Positions 12,339 to 39,306 of a stretch of 64,000 nucleotides of DNA are shown here, piece by piece; within the stretch, counting starts at the first letter, position 1; the number at the start of each line of letters is the position of its first letter. Both the position numbers and the translations under genes were made by a program. The stretch lies in the IMG/VR virus record IMGVR_UViG_3300009108_000002, positions 62,001-126,000 of that record; one strand, given 5' to 3'. This stretch comes from a virus. The notes beneath the pieces are model-generated. The model worked only from the letters and a program-made list of their open reading frames with translations, did not search any database and was not told where the DNA came from.

Positions 12339-13545
12339 GATTTATTCATTTAGTTATTCTGATATTCTTCATCCAATTGATTCATTCCATTCGCATGGTA
12401 CTCTTCGATCCTCTGATTCATTCTCGTCTATTGGTACTTTTGGGGAGCCTGATTCATTCAAAGCCTTTGAAACTATCGGGATGGGTGATTCATTCTGGCT
12501 ATTTGCTACTATCGAGGAACGTGATTCATTCTTCTTCATTGTGGGTTCAGGAGGAGTGATTCATTTGATGGAAATGATACTATCGTAGTCTATGATTCAT
12601 TACACTTGGTTGATACTTTCGGCTACATTGATTCATTCGTATTATATGTACTGTCATGTAGAGTGATTCATTCTAGATTATAGGTACTATCTGTGGAACT
12701 GATTCATTTGCTTACTGTGATACTCTCCATCAAGGTGATTCATTTACTCTATATGTAATTATCGGAGTGGACGATTCATTTAGTCCGTTTGATACTCTTT
12801 AGCGTTGTGATTCATTCCAACTGGCTGGTACTCTTGCTGATTTTGATTCATTCTTCATATTTGATACTATAGGCTTCAACGATTCATTCGGGCTTTTTGG
12901 TACTGTCTGTTAAAGTGATTCATTCATTTCTAGTGGTACTGTTGCCATGCTCGATTCATTTTTCTAAGCTGGTACTCTTCCTTCTGATAATTAATTGATA
13001 AGTATTGGTACTATTCACTGGTATATGATTCATTTCACAACCGTGGTACTCTTGCCCGTGTTGATTCACTCTAATGAGATGTTACTGTCCGTTGGTAAGG
13101 ATTCATTCATACTCTGTGATACTTTTTTCTACCAATGATTCATTCCAGGTCATCGTTACTATCTGTGGTATTGATTCATTTTCCTTATGTGGTACTTTTT
13201 ACCAAATATGATTCATTCATCAATCGTGTAACTATCTAATCGCAAGATTCATTCAATTTTTACGGCACACACAGTCATACTGATTTCCTCGTTCCATTAG
13301 GTACTTTCGGGCAACGTGGGTCATTAGCGTTTAGTGATACTCTCCCTATCAATGATTCATTCACATTTTGTGATACTGTTCGTAGATTTGATTCATTCAT
13401 GATGCATGGTACTCTACCAAGAGCGGATTCATTCATAAACACTGGTACTCTTCTTTTCCATGATTCATTTGACAGGACTGTTACTCTCTATCTTCCTGAT
13501 TCACTCTATATCCGTGATACTATCACTGGGAATGATTGACAAAAT
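12339..13545. repeat. 36-bp two-box tandem array, block 1
   Basis: About 33 units starting at 12379, 12415, 12451, 12487 and so on, nearly always exactly 36 bp apart (occasional 35 or 37). Each unit is box A (T)GATTCATTC, 7-8 free bases, box B TG[G/A]TACT[C/A]T[C/T], 8-9 free bases. Two decayed units (about 13282 and 13318) keep the phase. Box A has the palindromic core TGA-T-TCA, and the best box B, GATACTATC, is also palindromic. Free bases look random. No sustained frame or Shine-Dalgarno, so it is not coding. Confidence 0.9.
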
Positions 13546-13821
13546 ACATAGTATTTATTAGAAAAAATTTTGGGAAAATAGATGCTCATGTTTGGTGGTA
13601 CGCTGTGCGGTTCTGGTTCATTCTATGTTTGTGGAACTTTTCATACCTGTGATTGACTCGCTATTATTGCCCGATCAGATAGTCTGGTTAATTCAATTTC
13701 TAAATATCTTTGATTTTAAACACATAGTGACCGCCGTTAAATAAGCTATCGGTACCCATAAACATAGTGTAAGAATTAATGTAGTTCTTATTATTAATCT
13801 ACGAATAATCTTCTCCTTATA
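13546..13821. other. Interruption of the array
   Basis: Only traces of boxes remain (GGTTCATTC near 13614, GATTGACTC near 13652). The right part could encode a small membrane peptide, listed separately. Confidence 0.5.
13693..13806 (-). CDS. Possible 37-aa membrane peptide
   Basis: After AAGGAGAAG a frame opens at ATT codons and reads IRRLIIRTTLILTLCLWV then PIAYLTAV, one clear membrane helix, ending TGA. It has no ATG, GTG or TTG; an ATT start would be unusual. Length and hydrophobicity resemble other small membrane genes here, but this could be chance. Confidence 0.3.
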   Translation of the reverse strand: MRRLIIRTTLILTLCLWVPIAYLTAVTMCLKSKIFRN

Positions 13822-14605
13822 GGCTCATTCAATCCACTTGTTACTATCGAAGTAAATAATTCACTTACCCTAATTGAGACTGTTCCTTTTATTGGTTCAT
13901 TCCAAACCTTAGGTACTCTCGTGGCTTGTTGATTCATTCCTGATAATTGTTACTATCGAAGACATTGATTAATTCGACGGATTTGTTACTATTTGTGGTT
14001 AAAATTAATTCGGGTGAAATGGTACTATCGGCATTTGTGATTCATTCAATTCAAGTGATACTCTTCCTGCTCCTGATTCATTCTTGGATGATGTTACTGT
14101 GATGAGTCCTGATTTATTCGGGGAGTATGTCACTATCGTGGGCCATGATTCATTTAGTCAACGTGATACTGTCTCATAAAATGATTCATTATTGTTGATT
14201 GGTACTCGCAATATGGGTGATTCACTCTTATAGAATGGCACTCCTTTAGGCAATGATTCATTTGTTTATCCTGATACTTTCACGAACCGTGATTAATTCA
14301 TTTGCGAAAGTGGGTACTCTCATGCGTGATGATTTACTCGTGGACTCTGATACTCTCGCTCTTCTGTGGTTTACTCCAGCACCGTGGTACTCTAGCCATC
14401 GATGGTTCATTCGTAGTCTCTGATACGCTACATTGCGTTGATTCATTACGTTATGTTGGAACTCGCTATACTGTTGATTGCTCTTGTTTTATTTGTCACG
14501 CTTCAACCTGGATGGATCATTCTTACTGGTTGATACTATCGGCCTTATTGATTCATTTCTTGTCTATGATACTTTTCCATACTTTGTGATTCATTTGCTA
14601 GAGTT
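13822..14605. repeat. 36-bp two-box tandem array, block 2
   Basis: About 22 more units of the same design, more decayed, running into the 3' end of the 72-aa leftward gene. Box A variants include GATTAATTC, GATTTATTC and GATTCACTC; box B variants TGTTACTATC, TGATACTGTC and TGGTACTCTC. Confidence 0.85.
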
Positions 14606-14959: not shown

Positions 14960-14960
14960 T

Positions 14961-15005
14961 GATTAACTCGTAAAAATTGGAACTCTCTGGTTCTTTGGTT
15001 CATTA
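14961..15005. repeat. Isolated array unit
   Basis: GATTAACTC, box B TGGAACTCTC and then GGTTCATTA exactly 36 bp after the first box. Lies between two small genes and supplies the stop codon of the right-hand one. Confidence 0.7.
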
Positions 15006-16526: not shown

Positions 16527-16701
16527 TGTCCTTTATTCCTTTACGTATTATATCTAGGCCAAATAATACACGGGCTAATTTTTTACCTTCTGCGGTACGT
16601 TCTGTAGTGTTGAATTTAGTCGTAGTGAATGATATGTCATGTACTTCTTCTACTAATTTGCGTATTTCCTGAATTGTTTCTATTATTTGCTGTTGGGTCA
16701 T
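16516..16701 (-). CDS. Small helical protein
   Basis: 61 aa, helical (MTQQQIIETIQEIRKLVEEV). Its ATG sits inside an array box A (GAATGACC). Overlaps the deaminase start. No family recognised. Confidence 0.6.
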   Translation of the reverse strand: MTQQQIIETIQEIRKLVEEVHDISFTTTKFNTTERTAEGKKLARVLFGLDIIRKGIKDSET

Positions 16702-16810
16702 TCTTCAAATTTGTTACTACTACCGCTCTACGATTAGCTCAACTGTCTGTTACTGTGATAGCAGATGGTTCATTTGTTGGTCTGGTACTCTCACATCTTA
16801 CGATTAATGA
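16696..16810. repeat. Outlying array units
   Basis: About three units: GGTCATTC, TTGTTACTAC, GATTAGCTC, CTGTTACTGT, GGTTCATTT, CTGGTACTCTC and GATTAATG in 36-bp phase. They contain the start of the left gene and the stop of the right gene. Confidence 0.75.
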
Positions 16811-20587: not shown

Positions 20588-20827
20588 TTAAATGCGTCCC
20601 TCTACGGCTGCTTTTGCCGTATTAAGACGGAAAGTCTTAGCTTGTTTGACAGCACAAGGAGAGCATAGTCTTTTCGTATTATTTACTGGATTCAATGCTG
20701 ATTTTTTTCTAGCCCATCGTTCTTCTAAACAACCAGGACATTGAACCCAAACAAACCAAATTCGTGCAGAACCCTTAGTGGTATACCCTATTTCGTTTCC
20801 TCTTATTTCATCACCAACAATAGGCAT
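20588..20827 (-). CDS. Zinc-ribbon protein, paralogue of 22029-22190
   Basis: 79 aa. VQCPGCLEERWARKKSAL and RLCSPCAVKQAKTF share spacing and residues with the 53-aa protein downstream (CPxCxE ... C.PC...xAKxF). One zinc ribbon with a basic surface. ATG overlaps the upstream TAA by one base (TAATG). Confidence 0.75.
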   Translation of the reverse strand: MPIVGDEIRGNEIGYTTKGSARIWFVWVQCPGCLEERWARKKSALNPVNNTKRLCSPCAVKQAKTFRLNTAKAAVEGRI

Positions 20828-21303
20828 TAGATTAAAATCTTTCCTTCTTCAAATTTATATTGACCTGTCCCAACCCTCGCCCATCGATCCGTTTGTGGCT
20901 CAAATAAACGCACTGAGCCGTCATTAAAGACCATAATGTTGTAAGCATGTCCACCAGAATAGTCCACAACTAGTCCAACATTATTTATTCCAAATCTTCT
21001 GTCAACCATTGCTTTGAAACTAAATGCGAAGTTGTCACAGTCGTATTTTTCTGCGACGTATTTTTTATTATCTGTCCAATCCCAATCAATAATCTTTCTC
21101 ATATCTTTTTGGGTGGTTACTTGATACTTATTGTCTAGTGCAAAGATGTCCATTCCATATGTAATGCCTTTTTTATTCGCATAATTTAATCCGAATTGAG
21201 TAATACTGGAACGAACAAAGAATCCATTTTGTTCTGTAGAGGCAACCGTAGGAGCCTCAAATATACTTAGACAATGTTCTAAGTTACTTATTAACTCATC
21301 CAT
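20827..21303 (-). CDS. Papain-like, MOA C-terminal-type protein
   Basis: 158 aa. KYDCDNFAFSFKAMVD (candidate catalytic Cys at about residue 88), then VVDYSGGHAYNIMVF (His at about 119) and RLFEPQTDRW. The C/H order and EPQTD ending resemble the agglutinin_C cysteine-protease domain of Marasmius oreades agglutinin, here without a lectin part. Assignment is from motif memory only; a non-catalytic role is possible. Confidence 0.55.
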   Translation of the reverse strand: MDELISNLEHCLSIFEAPTVASTEQNGFFVRSSITQFGLNYANKKGITYGMDIFALDNKYQVTTQKDMRKIIDWDWTDNKKYVAEKYDCDNFAFSFKAMVDRRFGINNVGLVVDYSGGHAYNIMVFNDGSVRLFEPQTDRWARVGTGQYKFEEGKILI

Positions 21304-22202: not shown

Positions 22203-22697
22203 CTAAGAATCAATCCACTCACGACGATCACACACTACTGGTCTAGCTTGAATGGCTAGGTCGTATGCGTCATCAATAGACATGTCATGATAAGTGTGTA
22301 AATACCACACTACTGTGAGAGGACTGCGTTCCATTCCCATAGCGCAGTGTACAACTACTTTTGAATCATCAGATTCTGTAAGTACTTTATGTATCAATGC
22401 TGCTAATTCTGTTAAATCGTCGGTAACTCGTCCTGAATACGGATCTAAGTCAGCTTTTATTTGGGCAGAAGAATCTAATTCTCCAGCAACACAAATAGTG
22501 AAATAGTTTTGTAGTACAGATTCTTCACTACCTTCAAAATCCGTTATTCCTAGGCGATCTGTTACCCAACTAATTTCATCAACATCAAAATCATCAGGAA
22601 TAGTACGTCCCTGATTTTCTACTAACTTTTTAAGCCATTCTAATCTACTTCTAGATGCGCTATTCTCTTGATAATATTGTGGAGTTATTCTAGTCAT
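22203..22697 (-). CDS. Dual-specificity or tyrosine protein phosphatase
   Basis: 164 aa. VVHCAMGMERSPLTVVWYL holds the HCx5RS active site (Cys about residue 118, Arg about 124), and an upstream Asp-rich loop (RVTDDLTELAALIH) precedes it. Would remove phosphate from proteins or other substrates through a Cys-phosphate intermediate. Cytoplasmic. Substrate unknown; a host-takeover role is inferred. Confidence 0.85.
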   Translation of the reverse strand: MTRITPQYYQENSASRSRLEWLKKLVENQGRTIPDDFDVDEISWVTDRLGITDFEGSEESVLQNYFTICVAGELDSSAQIKADLDPYSGRVTDDLTELAALIHKVLTESDDSKVVVHCAMGMERSPLTVVWYLHTYHDMSIDDAYDLAIQARPVVCDRREWIDS

Positions 22698-23737: not shown

Positions 23738-24190
23738 TTACTTTTTCTTTTCTGTTTTTGTATTGATAGGTAGTTTTATAGATTCGGGGGATTTCGATAG
23801 ACGAGGTGTCGTAAGGGTTAATATTCCATTAGACAAATCTACCGTCGTCTGTTCGATATCATAATCTGAGGTCATACGAAATGACTTTTGTACTCGATTA
23901 GCATATACATGCGTTAGTACGTCATTAGTATCTGTCTCATTCACATTAACTACTATATTAATAACGTGAGCAGTTGAATTTACTGAGACATCAACTTGAT
24001 CGGATGTAACACCTGGTAGGAACATATATGTAAGTGCTATATCTCGTTCTTCATCTAATTTTTGAACTACATCAAAGACAGAAGGTTGAGACGTATATGA
24101 GTCCTTGTTGACCGTCGGAGATAGAAATTCTTCAATTAGATTAGAAAAGAGAGGCCGTCTTCTAGGAAAAGTTTGTCTACGTGATAGCAT
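23738..24190 (-). CDS. Hsp20-family small heat shock protein
   Basis: 150 aa. The alpha-crystallin domain covers about residues 45-140: FLPGVTSDQVDVSVNS, VQKSFRMTSDYDIEQ and LSNGILTLTTPR are the conserved strands. Short Arg-rich N-terminus and lysine-rich tail. ATP-independent chaperone that would hold unfolding proteins. Own promoter at 24228-24256 and AAAGGAG ribosome site. Confidence 0.9.
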   Translation of the reverse strand: MLSRRQTFPRRRPLFSNLIEEFLSPTVNKDSYTSQPSVFDVVQKLDEERDIALTYMFLPGVTSDQVDVSVNSTAHVINIVVNVNETDTNDVLTHVYANRVQKSFRMTSDYDIEQTTVDLSNGILTLTTPRLSKSPESIKLPINTKTEKKK

Positions 24191-24256: not shown

Positions 24257-24265
24257 TACTGACTC

Positions 24266-24306
24266 GATTCAAATGGTACTCTAGTTTCTCTAGGGTCACT
24301 CATTCT
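24266..24306. repeat. Isolated array unit
   Basis: GATTCAAA, TGGTACTCTA and GGTCACTCATTC, a decayed unit of the 36-bp array more than 9 kb from its main body, between the Hsp20 promoter and the 59-aa gene. Confidence 0.6.
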
Positions 24307-24546: not shown

Positions 24547-25635
24547 TTACGCCATAGGCCAATTAGGGGGAGCAATATAATGCGTATGGCCTTCTTGGTT
24601 CAAGATATATGGCTTTGGCGGAGGTGTGCCGAATGTTGCTTCATGGTTTACATGATGCCAATGTGCCAAGAATAGTTTTACAGCATACCGTTTAGCTCGT
24701 GCATGTAAGTGAGCAGGAGGTAGTTTACCTAATACATACGACTTATATGCATCGGTAGAACGTCCTACACGTTCCAGTTTCTTAGCAGCTTGTTCTGCAT
24801 ACTTACCCGATTCGTTATTCTGAGTCTCTAGCATTTTTCGTGCTTGGTAGACTTTACCGTATATATCTTCTGGATGGTTTGAAACCTTTACAAAGGATTC
24901 ACCCAACTTCCAACATATTAATTTCAAATCAGCATTCCAAGGACGCTTTGAAAGGGTTTTAACTATATTATCTTTGGTTAAGTAAGAACCCTTTCCTGTT
25001 GAAGTAGCAAAATTCTGAACTTGTTCCATGAAAGTATCTGCTTTGCGATTAGCTGCAGTAGCAATCTGAGCAAACTGTTCTTCAGTAACTTCGGCTCCAC
25101 GGCCTTCTATGAGTTCAGATACCAACTTGGAGGACTTATCTCGTCCTAGCCATTCCAATGTTGGGTCTAATCCCGCAAACCGCCATATATGTCCAACCGT
25201 AGGAGCTTTATTCATATCAATATGAGCAAGTAAACCTGCGGAAATAACTGGCCCAATGCCTCGTATAGACTCTGCCCACTGTCCGATTACTTCCTGACCG
25301 CTAGCAACTGCTAGGAATTTTTGAATATTTTTCTCGGTAGTTTCAATACCATCAGAAACAAAAGAGAACATAGAAGCAGGATCATCTTGCTTTGAGAGAG
25401 CCGAAACTCGATTCTTTAGTAGCTTACGTAGTTCTTGAACGCCATAATAAGAACTAACTAGAAAACGAATTTCATCCTTTGACATACCTTGAGGATTCGA
25501 ACCAATTTTATCGAGAGCATCCTTAGTGATTCGATTTACAAGTTCTATCTGAAAGGATCGAATACTATTCATATCCAGAGAAAACTCTTCATCGTCTCCC
25601 ATGATATCGGTAACCATCTCCTGTGCTTTTACCAT
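24547..25635 (-). CDS. IS110-type C-terminal (Transposase_20) helix-hairpin-helix protein
   Basis: 362 aa from the ATG at 25635, which follows GGAGAAAGG; an ATG at 25647 would overlap that ribosome site. SIRGIGPVISAGLLAHIDM and GHIWRFAGLDPT at about residues 125-160 match the helix-hairpin-helix core of the IS110/IS116 transposase C-terminal domain. The N-terminal RuvC-like DEDD domain of those enzymes is absent, replaced by a helical region, and the C-terminus (HARAKRYAVKLFLAHWHHVN) is extended. Probably a DNA-binding phage protein, not a mobile element. Confidence 0.6.
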   Translation of the reverse strand: MVKAQEMVTDIMGDDEEFSLDMNSIRSFQIELVNRITKDALDKIGSNPQGMSKDEIRFLVSSYYGVQELRKLLKNRVSALSKQDDPASMFSFVSDGIETTEKNIQKFLAVASGQEVIGQWAESIRGIGPVISAGLLAHIDMNKAPTVGHIWRFAGLDPTLEWLGRDKSSKLVSELIEGRGAEVTEEQFAQIATAANRKADTFMEQVQNFATSTGKGSYLTKDNIVKTLSKRPWNADLKLICWKLGESFVKVSNHPEDIYGKVYQARKMLETQNNESGKYAEQAAKKLERVGRSTDAYKSYVLGKLPPAHLHARAKRYAVKLFLAHWHHVNHEATFGTPPPKPYILNQEGHTHYIAPPNWPMA

Positions 25636-25705
25636 ACCTTTCTCCATGCAGTTATAGTCTTACATTGACTTTTGAATTTGACCCCATTTCTGAGGACATG
25701 GCAGT

Positions 25706-25742: not shown

Positions 25743-26633
25743 TTAGGTATGGTTTTCGGGAGATAATTCGATGAGAAGTTCATTAGCATATTGAGATGCT
25801 AAGACTCTGTACTGTCGGCCTAATCCTTCGATTTCTTTATATTCTTTAATGGACGTTAAGAAGATATTAGTGGTTAAGAATGTAATGTTGTAATGCTGTT
25901 TAATAATTTCTAACCATCTTCCTAGTCCATTAGTTTTACCTATTCTAGTTCGAATAAATTCCCTGAATCCATCTTCTAGCGGATTTGCAGTATAGGTTTC
26001 AGGAGTAGGTAATTCACTACGGCATGTTAAACATGCCCAAGTAATGTCTAAAGGATTACGGTAATCTGAATGTACTGCTTGGGTTTTTGAAGCGTTACAT
26101 CTAAAACAAGGTTGCTTAGAGATAATTCCATTTTTTAATGCTTTGTAAACTTGATAATATGCTCGTTGTCGTTCAGGATGTTTCTGAGATAGAGCACGAG
26201 TTGTTTTAATGTGACTCTGTTTACCTCTCTCCGTTTTGTAATAATTACGTTGCCACTTAGCTCTGCAATCTAAACAACGAGTTTCATATCCTGATGATGA
26301 AATATTACTCTTAGCAAATTGTTCTAATACTTTATGTTGTTGACATACTCTACATTGGTAGTATGCGCCAGGATGTCGTTCAATAATTTTAGCGTGAGTT
26401 CTACAGAACGTTGCATGCTTACTGATAGGTTTTTTGCAAGTTTTACAATGATTAATCAGAGCAGGGAGTCTATGATGTCTATCTTCTCCCATTGTATCTA
26501 ATAGATTACATATACGTTGACGAGAAACTCCCAATGCTCTGCTAAGTTCTGCGGTATTTATTCTTCCTGTAGGGTTATCAACTAGGTATTTTTCTAAACT
26601 TTGGCGTGTGTTTAGCTCTACCAAAAATGCCAC
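25743..26633 (-). CDS. HTH and HNH-like zinc protein
   Basis: 296 aa, GTG start after AAGGTG. Residues 20-50 are a helix-turn-helix (NTAELSRALGVSRQRICNLL). Then CKTCKKPISKH, YQCRVCQQHKVLEQF and CLDCRAKWQ zinc knuckles, and PCFRCNASKTQAVHSDY with WACLTCRSE as an HNH-like core (D in place of the second catalytic residue). Likely a site-specific DNA-binding protein or homing-type nuclease. Confidence 0.7.
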   Translation of the reverse strand: MAFLVELNTRQSLEKYLVDNPTGRINTAELSRALGVSRQRICNLLDTMGEDRHHRLPALINHCKTCKKPISKHATFCRTHAKIIERHPGAYYQCRVCQQHKVLEQFAKSNISSSGYETRCLDCRAKWQRNYYKTERGKQSHIKTTRALSQKHPERQRAYYQVYKALKNGIISKQPCFRCNASKTQAVHSDYRNPLDITWACLTCRSELPTPETYTANPLEDGFREFIRTRIGKTNGLGRWLEIIKQHYNITFLTTNIFLTSIKEYKEIEGLGRQYRVLASQYANELLIELSPENHT

Positions 26634-36985: not shown

Positions 36986-38002
36986 ATGGCTTCCAATACT
37001 TCAGAACTTCTGCCCATCTTGAAGGCTTTGCGAGAGTATATCGTCAAAGAGTATGGAGTGAATTATCCACCCCATGTTCGTGGCGAAGATGCCTCTCAGA
37101 AAGCATTGCCGGATGATTGGGTGGACAAGTTAAATCCCCTTAGTGGTGGCGATACAGTAGGTCGGAATCAGATGGGTTCATCTGGTACCAATTCTACCAA
37201 AGCTGGTGCTCAGGGAACTGATCCATACCTCCATAAGAGCGATCTTGAAGCTATTTTGGCTGACTTCGCAAAACATATGGTTGATGGACAAGCAGTGCAA
37301 GCTGGTGGCCCACGGGCTGATGGCATGCATGGAGCCGGAGGATACTCGTATCCTGGCGATTCCAGTCGGATTCCAGAAGGTCTAGAAAAAGATCATCATG
37401 AGAATGGTGATGACGAAGACATAATGGAAGACGAAGTCGAAGATATCGAAGAAGATGTTGCCGACGATGAAGAAATGATGGACGAAGAAGACGAGGACAT
37501 GGAAAAGAATTACATGGCCCGCAGTGCCGATGGCATCAACGAACTTCTAAAGGACATCAAAGGTCTTCTAAGTTCTCGTGAGCAAGAAAAGCAACATTAT
37601 GCTTCAATGCAAGGCGAGATTTCTGAACTCAAAAAGTCCGTTGCTAAAGATGTCAAAGATGGCATACGCAAAGGCTTGAAGAGCTTCAATCTTAATCCTT
37701 CTCACGGTGATATGGCTACTCGCACTCCCATTTATGGTGAAGAGCAGCAAGCTGAAGCCGTTTCTACACAAATGATGCCAGACCAGCGCATCGGTGTAGA
37801 AGGTGAGTCTTTCCAAAAGTCTGATGAAGAGCAAGTTGCTGAACAATTCGTTGACGGCATCGAACAAATCGTCAAACAGACGGATGCTAATGACCTCCGA
37901 GGGCATTTCAAACTGGTAAACGGGATGCGTAATCAGTCTGGTGAGCTTACTCCTCAGACCTTGTATTACTATCCACGACCTTCAAATGGGAGGTCTAGCT
38001 AA
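36986..38002 (+). CDS. Scaffold-like capsid assembly protein
   Basis: 338 aa. Position between protease and capsid genes, a highly acidic Asp/Glu middle (about residues 135-175, EDEVEDIEEDVADDEEM), and a coiled-coil region (LLKDIKGLLSSREQEKQHYA) fit a scaffolding protein. AGGAGGGG ribosome site. Its TAA overlaps the capsid ATG. Codon use shifts to more C-ending codons as in the capsid gene, a sign of high expression. Confidence 0.65.
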   Translation: MASNTSELLPILKALREYIVKEYGVNYPPHVRGEDASQKALPDDWVDKLNPLSGGDTVGRNQMGSSGTNSTKAGAQGTDPYLHKSDLEAILADFAKHMVDGQAVQAGGPRADGMHGAGGYSYPGDSSRIPEGLEKDHHENGDDEDIMEDEVEDIEEDVADDEEMMDEEDEDMEKNYMARSADGINELLKDIKGLLSSREQEKQHYASMQGEISELKKSVAKDVKDGIRKGLKSFNLNPSHGDMATRTPIYGEEQQAEAVSTQMMPDQRIGVEGESFQKSDEEQVAEQFVDGIEQIVKQTDANDLRGHFKLVNGMRNQSGELTPQTLYYYPRPSNGRSS

Positions 38003-39306
38003 TGGCTGATCTAAGCATAGCGCAGTATATATCTTCTGCGGAGCGAAATCTGCGTAGCTCACTGATGCCACCTGGTTACTTTGCTAAGCAAACGTACCTT
38101 CAGGTATCAGATGTGTTCACTGCAACTTACGGACGTAAAGTCTGGGACGCATTGAACAACCAGACACGATTTTGGAACATTCTTCGGAAAGTACAATGGG
38201 GACCCACCACTGGTTGGCGTTTGCGGTCAGATAGGGGCGATAGCCGTTCCCGTCCCGTAACTGAAACTGGTGCGCTTCCCACTGTCGATGTCAGCAATTA
38301 CGTCAACGTGGACTCTGCTCCTCGTATCGTAGCTACTGACTTCGGTGTCTCACTCAAGTCCCAGATCATGAGCGGTCTGGAAGGTGGTATGGGGGACAAC
38401 CTGGCAGTTGAGCAAGAAGCTGCTGCTAGGGACCACATAAAAGAGTTGAACCAGGAACTCCTGCTTCGCTCGATGACCATCGCCTCGACTGCTGGTGCCT
38501 CTGGTACTGGTGAAATAATCTCCGCTGGTAACACTCTCCGTGTTGGTGACACTTTCGGTGGAACCACCATCGGTGATACTGCTCTTACTTATAGCGGTCT
38601 TGACGCTCAGAGTGACGCTACTTGGACAGGTGGCGGAAACTTGACTGACGGTGAGATTGTTTATGTAAAGAGCCGTGCTGGCTTCACTTCTCTTGACGAC
38701 ATCGTCGAACAAGATGCTCGTGTCGTAGCTGGCGTGACTGTTACTAACGGCGTAGACGTATATAACCAAACTACTCGTGCTGCTGGAGCGCACAATGCTG
38801 CTGCTACCGTTCTTGGTAATAGTGGTACTGGGCGTAACCTCACGTTGGCCCTGCTAGACCAGGCCATTCGTGAAGTTCGTGTAAACGGTGCTGACCCTGA
38901 CGTAATTCTGATGGGTTATGACCAGTTTGACCGTCTATCTTCCCTGTTGCAAGCTCAGCAACGTTATCTGGACTGGGGCGAATTTGTTGTCAAAGTCGGC
39001 GACGAATCCACTCTTCCAGGTTCCCACGCTGGCTTCCAGGTGGCTACTTATAGGGGTATCCCAGTCATTGTCGATCCTGATGTTCAGGGTTCGTTCACGG
39101 CTGCAGATGCTAACCTTGGTAGCAATGTCTATGTCATGGATACACGGTACTTGGAACTCGCTATTGCTGCTCCTACGCAGTATATCGACAACCGAGACTT
39201 CTTCCAGGCAAACGCATTCGTCCTTCGTGGATTGTTCTACACCATCGGTGAACTACGATCCTTGCGTTTGGACGCACACGCCAAGATTACTGACCTGAAC
39301 GCCTAA
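38002..39306 (+). CDS. Major capsid protein (HK97 fold)
   Basis: 434 aa. N-terminal helix (IAQYISSAERNLRSSL), E-loop-like RSDRGDSRSRPVTETGALP, spine-helix region and C-terminal P/A-domain segment PDVILMGYDQFDRLS ... YRGIPVIVDPDV ... VYVMDTRYLELA fit HK97-type capsid proteins. An extra Gly/Thr-rich insertion at about residues 165-270 may be a surface domain. Codons are strongly biased, consistent with the most abundant virion protein. Confidence 0.85.
   Translation: MADLSIAQYISSAERNLRSSLMPPGYFAKQTYLQVSDVFTATYGRKVWDALNNQTRFWNILRKVQWGPTTGWRLRSDRGDSRSRPVTETGALPTVDVSNYVNVDSAPRIVATDFGVSLKSQIMSGLEGGMGDNLAVEQEAAARDHIKELNQELLLRSMTIASTAGASGTGEIISAGNTLRVGDTFGGTTIGDTALTYSGLDAQSDATWTGGGNLTDGEIVYVKSRAGFTSLDDIVEQDARVVAGVTVTNGVDVYNQTTRAAGAHNAAATVLGNSGTGRNLTLALLDQAIREVRVNGADPDVILMGYDQFDRLSSLLQAQQRYLDWGEFVVKVGDESTLPGSHAGFQVATYRGIPVIVDPDVQGSFTAADANLGSNVYVMDTRYLELAIAAPTQYIDNRDFFQANAFVLRGLFYTIGELRSLRLDAHAKITDLNA

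What the first reader, a model, noticed from the sequence alone, without database searches (positions are those of the whole stretch)
12339..14605. Noncoding array of about 55 units with strict 36-bp phase and two alternating boxes
Box A (GATTCATTC) and box B (TGRTACTMTC) alternate with random-looking bases between. The phase survives decay: GATTCATTC at 13246 and 13354 are exactly 3 x 36 apart although the two units between are nearly unreadable. Only the boxes are conserved, so selection acts on regularly spaced short sites, not on copy identity. That does not match CRISPR, satellite or coding repeats. Box A has a palindromic TGA-T-TCA core and strong box B copies read GATACTATC, also palindromic, suggesting a platform for dimeric DNA-binding proteins (partition, packaging, compaction or sponge).
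Basis: partly seen in the sequence, partly recalled or inferred. Interest (0 to 1): 0.92.

Follow-up and report, generated by a model that had tools for sequence, protein, structure and literature searches.

The report
Phage-borne TIGR guide-RNA array
The repeat array is a guide-RNA bank of a recently described RNA-guided DNA-binding system (TIGR-Tas), carried by an uncultured tailed virus that also encodes the matching Tas protein about 10 kb away; it is a large new example of a known kind whose targets are still unknown.

Summary
In detail: 46 box-A/box-B pairs at the stated spacing lie in the window against 0.09 expected by chance, and all but one of them lie between 12378 and 14576. The interpretation as a DNA platform is not right. 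The array is a TIGR array (Tandem Interspaced Guide RNA; Faure et al. 2025, PMC12045711). It has two alternating 10-nt repeats and two 8-nt spacers in a 36-nt unit, begins and ends with the same repeat, and occurs with a Tas gene. The Tas gene is window 24547-25647 (-), a nuclease-less Nop-domain protein (TasA type). Its profile and predicted fold best match solved TasR and TasH. All eight array-bearing records examined encode Tas. Of 80 other Tas-encoding viral loci, 69 show such an array, 57 at exactly 36 bp. Across 56 arrays, the 3' half of one edge repeat covaries with the 5' half of the next (z about 19-20) but not with its own other half. G-U pairs mark the tas-sense strand as the RNA. 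Between relatives, spacers diverge 4-8 times faster than repeats. No spacer targets could be found. This is a new member of a known kind.

The parts
12342..14597 (-). TIGR array, about 54 units; tas-sense unit = edge repeat GAATGAATCA, spacer A (8 nt), loop repeat GANAGTAYCA, spacer B (8 nt); starts and ends with an edge repeat
   Evidence: anatomy and chance; same design in 56 arrays; strand
13534..13821 (.). interruption: mostly non-array DNA with degenerate unit remnants (e.g. 13614-13641)
14960..14987 (-). isolated TIGR unit outside the main array
16694..16721 (-). isolated degenerate TIGR unit
   Evidence: score 18.8; one null position in 139 kb exceeded 8, maximum 9.7
24260..24301 (-). 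degenerate TIGR unit just downstream of the tas gene (loop TGGTACTCTA at 24274-24283 on +, edge-like AGGGTCACTC at 24292-24301)
   Evidence: sequence; spacing as in the array; recognised by eye, below the PWM cut-off
24547..25647 (-). tas gene, 366 aa, nuclease-less Nop-domain (TasA-type) protein, same strand as the tigRNA
   Evidence: Pfam Transposase_20 only; profile hits TasR 9mty E 7e-26 and TasH 21kl E 2e-10; predicted fold best matches TasH and TasR
25743..26633 (-). gene just upstream of tas, winged-helix-like N-terminus plus zinc-binding endonuclease-VII/HNH-like region; conserved neighbour of tas in this virus clade only; role unknown

Best explanation
The array is a TIGR array working with the virus's own TasA protein. 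It is transcribed from the minus strand (tas sense) as a precursor RNA. That RNA is cut in the middle of each edge repeat into 36-nt tigRNAs (3' half edge, spacer A, loop, spacer B, 5' half edge). The edge halves pair end to end and the loop closes on itself, so a TasA dimer can hold one tigRNA. Spacer A would pair with one strand of a DNA target and spacer B with the other, as shown for TasR and TasH. With no nuclease domain, the likely outcome is binding, opening and bending of the target, blocking its transcription or replication, most plausibly of competing mobile elements or host genes. Supported here: array anatomy, Tas homology and fold, co-occurrence, shared orientation, end-to-end pairing of each unit and its strand, fast spacer turnover. 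Inferred from the published system: processing, DNA binding and effect. Unknown: the targets.
For: Array anatomy equals the published one: alternating 8-12-nt repeats, 16 nt of spacer as in SpTIGR, 36-nt unit, edge repeat at both ends (vs PMC12045711). Tas homolog in the same genome: profile best hits TasR 9mty (E 7e-26) and TasH (2e-10) ahead of IS110 transposases; all 11 top fold matches are TasH or TasR. All eight array-bearing records have Tas, against 4 of 22 others. 69 of 80 other Tas loci have a 33-45-bp array, 57 at 36 bp, against 4 of 95 control loci at 36 bp. Arrays keep one orientation relative to tas. Unit-wise covariation: edge pos 8 x next edge pos 3, 88.7% Watson-Crick vs 73.5% in within-array shuffles (z 18.7); pos 7 x pos 4, 94.7% vs 79.2% (z 20.2); same-edge pairs z -0.3 and 2.2; loop pos 8 x pos 3 z 9.9. 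G-U pairs are tolerated and A-C pairs are not in tas sense (67 vs 18, 28 vs 4).
Against: The main array lies about 10 kb from tas, where the paper describes adjacency (only a degenerate unit is adjacent here). It has about 54 units where 5-15 are usual. No rho-independent terminator was found at its 3' end. No spacer pair has a convincing target: matches in the virus's own genome and in about 2.8 Mb of viral DNA are at the level of mispaired controls. No expression data exist for this virus.
Confidence: 0.96

Rival explanations
1. DNA platform: the boxes are double-stranded sites for dimeric proteins (partition, packaging, compaction or sponge).
For: Regular spacing, many copies, palindromic-looking cores.
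Against: The symmetry is not within a box: bases covary between the end of one edge repeat and the start of the next, with G-U but not A-C tolerance on one strand only, an RNA signature. 36 bp is not a whole number of helical turns. The array travels with a gene for an RNA-binding Nop protein.
Confidence: 0.02
2. The array is a decaying relic of a TIGR array, no longer used; Tas serves the other mini-arrays or another role.
For: A 290-bp interruption, degenerate units, steps of 35-40 bp, distance from tas.
Against: In the window the pairing positions are kept: 42 of 44 unit pairs at positions 8-3 are Watson-Crick and the other two are G-U; all 44 at 7-4 are Watson-Crick. Repeats hold more than 1 bit at most positions while the spacers hold almost none. 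Relatives G016 and G007 keep arrays with wholly different spacers.
Confidence: 0.08
3. IS110-like transposon with a bridge RNA; the array is made of repeated bridge-RNA fragments.
For: The Tas protein hits Pfam Transposase_20 of IS110.
Against: No DEDD catalytic domain is found. TasR and TasH match far better than IS621 or ISCro4. Bridge RNAs are single two-stem units, not 54-unit arrays (PMC12045711).
Confidence: 0.01
4. The TIGR system acts on the virus's own genome, as gene regulation or a partition/recombination aid, rather than on other DNA.
For: TasA lacks a nuclease, so self-targeting would not be lethal. The paper (PMC12045711) notes TasA beside ParB-like genes and suggests an aid to integrases.
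Against: Spacer pairs matched to the virus's own genome give 0 exact and 1 one-mismatch hit against 0 and 0.5 in mispaired controls (+ strand reading); the tas-sense geometry gave none above controls in larger sets that include this genome. Fast spacer turnover does not fit fixed self-sites.
Confidence: 0.15

Closest known systems
TIGR-TasA systems with dual-repeat arrays (Faure et al. 2025, Science, PMC12045711)
   Same: Two alternating repeats, two short spacers, 36-nt unit, edge repeats at both ends, Nop-domain protein without nuclease, phage host
   Different: About 54 units instead of the usual 5-15; main array about 10 kb from tas; repeats start with GA rather than UG in tas sense; 366-aa TasA with a roughly 70-aa insertion absent from compact relatives
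TIGR-TasR and TIGR-TasH (PDB 9mty, 21kl)
   Same: Nop domain, tandem-spacer design, repeats ending in box C (CCA)
   Different: No RuvC or HNH domain in the window protein
IS110/IS1111 transposases with bridge or seek RNA
   Same: Shared Transposase_20 (Nop-like RNA-binding) region
   Different: No DEDD domain; no single bridge RNA
CRISPR arrays
   Same: Repeats alternating with variable spacers; spacer units gained and lost between relatives
   Different: Two different 10-nt repeats, split 8-nt spacers; no cas gene was identified among the ORFs searched, but no systematic Cas search was run
Acidianus tailed spindle virus repeat array (Hochstein et al. 2016, cited in PMC12045711 as an earlier sighting)
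   Same: Similar array structure in a virus genome, according to PMC12045711
   Different: Not examined here; unrelated virus

Membership tests
TIGR dual-repeat array | Two distinct alternating 8-12-nt repeats separated by short (about 8-12-nt) spacers, about 36-nt unit | tested here: met
   10-nt boxes, 8-nt spacers, 36-bp unit
TIGR dual-repeat array | Array begins and ends with a (truncated) edge repeat | tested here: met
   both ends carry box A; the 12342 end is degenerate (AAATGAATAA in tas sense)
TIGR dual-repeat array | Rho-independent terminator after the array (typical, not universal, in the paper) | tested here: not met
   only 2 terminator-like sites, both on the + strand inside the array, no more than in shuffles
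TIGR dual-repeat array | Box C/D motifs shared by edge and loop repeats | tested here: met
   both repeats start GA and end YCA in tas sense, and vary together between arrays
TIGR dual-repeat array | Edge-repeat base pairs joining the two ends of one tigRNA, supported by covariation | tested here: met
   z 18.7 and 20.2 for unit-wise pairs, about 0 and 2 for same-edge pairs; window alone 2x2 Fisher p 0.0017
TIGR dual-repeat array | Associated Tas (Nop-domain) gene nearby | tested here: met
   always present in array-bearing records. In the window it is about 10 kb away, same strand
TIGR dual-repeat array | Processing into 36-nt RNAs bound by Tas | not testable with these tools
   needs small-RNA sequencing; the covariation frame fits mid-edge cutting
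TIGR dual-repeat array | Spacers A and B direct binding to opposite strands of a DNA target | tested here: inconclusive
   no excess of spacer A + revcomp(spacer B) matches over mispaired controls
TasA (nuclease-less Tas) | Nop domain related to TasR/TasH/IS110 | tested here: met
TasA (nuclease-less Tas) | No RuvC or HNH domain | tested here: met
   N-terminus disordered then helices; the profile aligns from TasR residue 115 onward
CRISPR array | One repeat of 25-36 nt separated by spacers of similar length | tested here: not met
IS110 transposon | DEDD catalytic domain in the transposase | tested here: not met
   only Transposase_20 found

The most novel reading that the evidence does not exclude
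TIGR-TasA arrays of these phages renew guides in place. Single spacers or spacer pairs at fixed positions in an otherwise identical array are replaced while their neighbours stay unchanged (L194/L195/L198), unlike end-on CRISPR acquisition. This would give large guide banks against fast-changing DNA by an unknown spacer-editing mechanism. In this marine clade a conserved endonuclease-VII/HNH-like protein encoded just upstream of tas could supply cleavage in trans.
Probability: 0.2. Interest if true: 0.8.

Novelty: new member of a known kind. Interest (0 to 1): 0.47.

Why it matters
TIGR-Tas was described only in 2025, and its authors list array growth, spacer origin and natural targets as open. 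This is one of the longer arrays (54 units against the usual 5-15), on a 141-kb virus record. The comparison set built around it gives an independent, sequence-only demonstration that the functional unit is an RNA running from mid-edge to mid-edge on the tas strand. It also shows that spacers turn over several times faster than repeats, with replacements at fixed positions. That makes the spacer-origin question testable on existing metagenomes.

Tried and rejected
Coding repeat: all six frames are full of stops and indels of 1-4 bp break the frame. DNA-binding platform: see rivals. Rfam: no family in the window. blastn of the array against annotated phages: only chance 30-bp matches. Own-genome targets: 17 hits at two mismatches against 16.9 in mispaired controls, 1 at one mismatch against 0.5. 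Targets in about 1.5 Mb of related viruses: an apparent excess in one geometry (11 vs 5.9) vanished after removing redundant copies (8 vs 5.5). About 1,060 spacer pairs from 56 arrays against 2.8 Mb: 5 exact hits against 1-7 in controls. Promoter scan of the array: at chance level. One scan of viral contigs with the window Tas protein alone found nothing; the 12-protein alignment found 462 relatives, of which 80 were kept. Four control loci with 36-bp periodicity (L003, L005-L007) are close relatives of this virus; I attribute them to the repeats at 37376-37567 inside the gene 36986-38002, without checking each.

Full report
OBSERVATION. TGATTCATTC-N8-TGNTACTNTC with up to three mismatches occurs 46 times in the window against 0.09 expected in dinucleotide shuffles; 45 of the 46 lie in 12378-14576 and one at 14960. 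A looser caller gives 54 units. The two boxes carry about 0.5-1.8 bits per position, except two weak positions in box B, and the two 8-nt gaps almost none. The phase is 36 bp with occasional steps of 35, 37, 38 and 40 and one interruption (13534-13821). No reading frame runs through it.

WHAT IT IS. A scan of IMG/VR with one exact unit pulled out five further, different viruses with the same kind of array and unrelated spacers, besides relative G016. In several of them the array abuts a gene of IS110-like ancestry, and a homolog of that gene is in this window at 24547-25647 (-). The combination is the TIGR-Tas system of Faure et al. 2025 (PMC12045711; [quoted passage not shown] 36-nt RNAs cut in mid-edge; a Nop-domain protein that may be nuclease-less (TasA). 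The window protein has Pfam Transposase_20 but no DEDD, RuvC or HNH domain. A 12-member profile hits solved TasR (9mty, E 7e-26) and TasH (21kl, 2e-10) ahead of IS621 (1e-6). Its predicted structure (mean pLDDT 80) best matches TasH and TasR entries, TM-score 0.5-0.65 on the target, then IS110 recombinases much more weakly. It is therefore filed as TasA.

CO-OCCURRENCE AND ORIENTATION. All eight records with this array type (G000, G007, G016, G024-G028) encode Tas; only 4 of the other 22 do, with more divergent copies. Among 80 further viral loci found through the Tas alignment, 69 have a 33-45-bp periodic array and 57 peak at exactly 36 bp; in 95 control loci only 4 reach the 36-bp criterion. 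In tas-oriented loci the repeats read GA...CCA or GA...TCA on the tas strand, often starting right at the end of tas. In the window this makes the minus strand the guide strand. The array lies about 10 kb downstream of tas in the direction of transcription, and the larger ORFs between them are also on the minus strand.

RNA EVIDENCE. In 1,060 units from 56 arrays I asked whether edge-repeat positions 3-4 and 7-8, which look palindromic, pair. Within one contiguous edge repeat they do not covary beyond within-array shuffles (z -0.3 and 2.2). Between the 3' half of an edge and the 5' half of the next edge, which are the two ends of one processed tigRNA, they do (88.7% and 94.7% Watson-Crick; z 18.7 and 20.2). 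Loop positions 8 and 3 also covary (z 9.9). Mispairs are asymmetric: G-U 67 vs A-C 18, and 28 vs 4, when read in tas sense, which marks that strand as the RNA. In the window alone, 44 unit pairs are all Watson-Crick or G-U at both positions. Copying of units as blocks could create correlation between the two ends, but not specifically Watson-Crick complementarity with G-U tolerance on one strand.

ARRAY EVOLUTION. In closely related viruses, spacers change much faster than repeats: 0.113 vs 0.029 (L194/L198, tas divergence 0.031), 0.456 vs 0.069 (L201/L205, 0.032) and 0.608 vs 0.081 (L241/L253, 0.064). Many units are kept as intact spacer pairs in the same order, some are gained, lost or duplicated, and some spacers are replaced at a fixed position between unchanged neighbours. 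The window shares no unit with its relatives G016 (Tas 79% identical) and G007. The global alignments behind these rates mix substitution and misaligned replaced units, so they measure turnover, not a mutation rate.

TARGETS. By the published cleavage geometry a target should read spacer A followed by the reverse complement of spacer B with a gap of 0-2. Neither the virus's own genome, related viruses, nor 2.8 Mb of viral DNA with spacer pairs from 56 arrays gives more matches than mispaired controls. The targets remain unknown; hosts and co-occurring elements were not searchable here.

HOW IT LIKELY WORKS. Minus-strand transcription, mid-edge processing, a TasA dimer with one tigRNA, tandem pairing to both strands of a DNA site, and, without a nuclease, obstruction or bending of that site. 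The anatomy, Tas identity, strand and unit pairing are supported by the calculations above. Processing, DNA binding and effect are inferred from the published TasR, TasH and TasA experiments. A protein with a winged-helix-like start and endonuclease-VII/HNH-like zinc region is encoded just upstream of tas in six of the seven marine-clade records that carry both genes. Its canonical HNH histidines look degenerate in the window copy, so a role in cleavage is only a guess.

VERDICT. A real and well-made TIGR array with its TasA: a new member of a known kind, unusually long, and separated from its gene.

Noticed in passing
25743-26633 (-): Conserved neighbour upstream of tas: winged-helix-like N-terminus and endonuclease-VII/HNH-like zinc region with degenerate HNH residues; restricted to this marine virus clade and once present without tas (G013).
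   Followed up: partly
G000:C1:38266-38409 and 47990: A four-unit TIGR mini-array and a single unit far outside the window in the same genome.
   Followed up: partly
37376-37567: A second 36-bp periodicity inside an ORF (36986-38002) near the major capsid gene; probably a coding repeat, not TIGR.
   Followed up: no
38002-39306: Major capsid protein with about 31% identity over part of its length to haloarchaeal tailed viruses (HCTV/HVTV) only; more than 80 IMG/VR relatives. DNA polymerase A, ribonucleotide reductase and poly-A polymerase-like genes elsewhere in the genome suggest a bacterial host.
   Followed up: partly
L083:7615-10353 (G000:C1:27615-30353): 912-aa virus protein with a PI3/PI4-kinase-like domain (PF00454, E 2.8e-7).
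   Followed up: no
20827-21303 (-), 22203-22697 (-), 23738-24190 (-): Ricin-type lectin C-terminal domain, dual-specificity phosphatase and HSP20-like genes between the array and tas.
   Followed up: no
L192, L190, L259, L207, L217: Some Tas-encoding viruses carry several TIGR arrays spread over more than 5 kb (up to about 107 units in L207).
   Followed up: no
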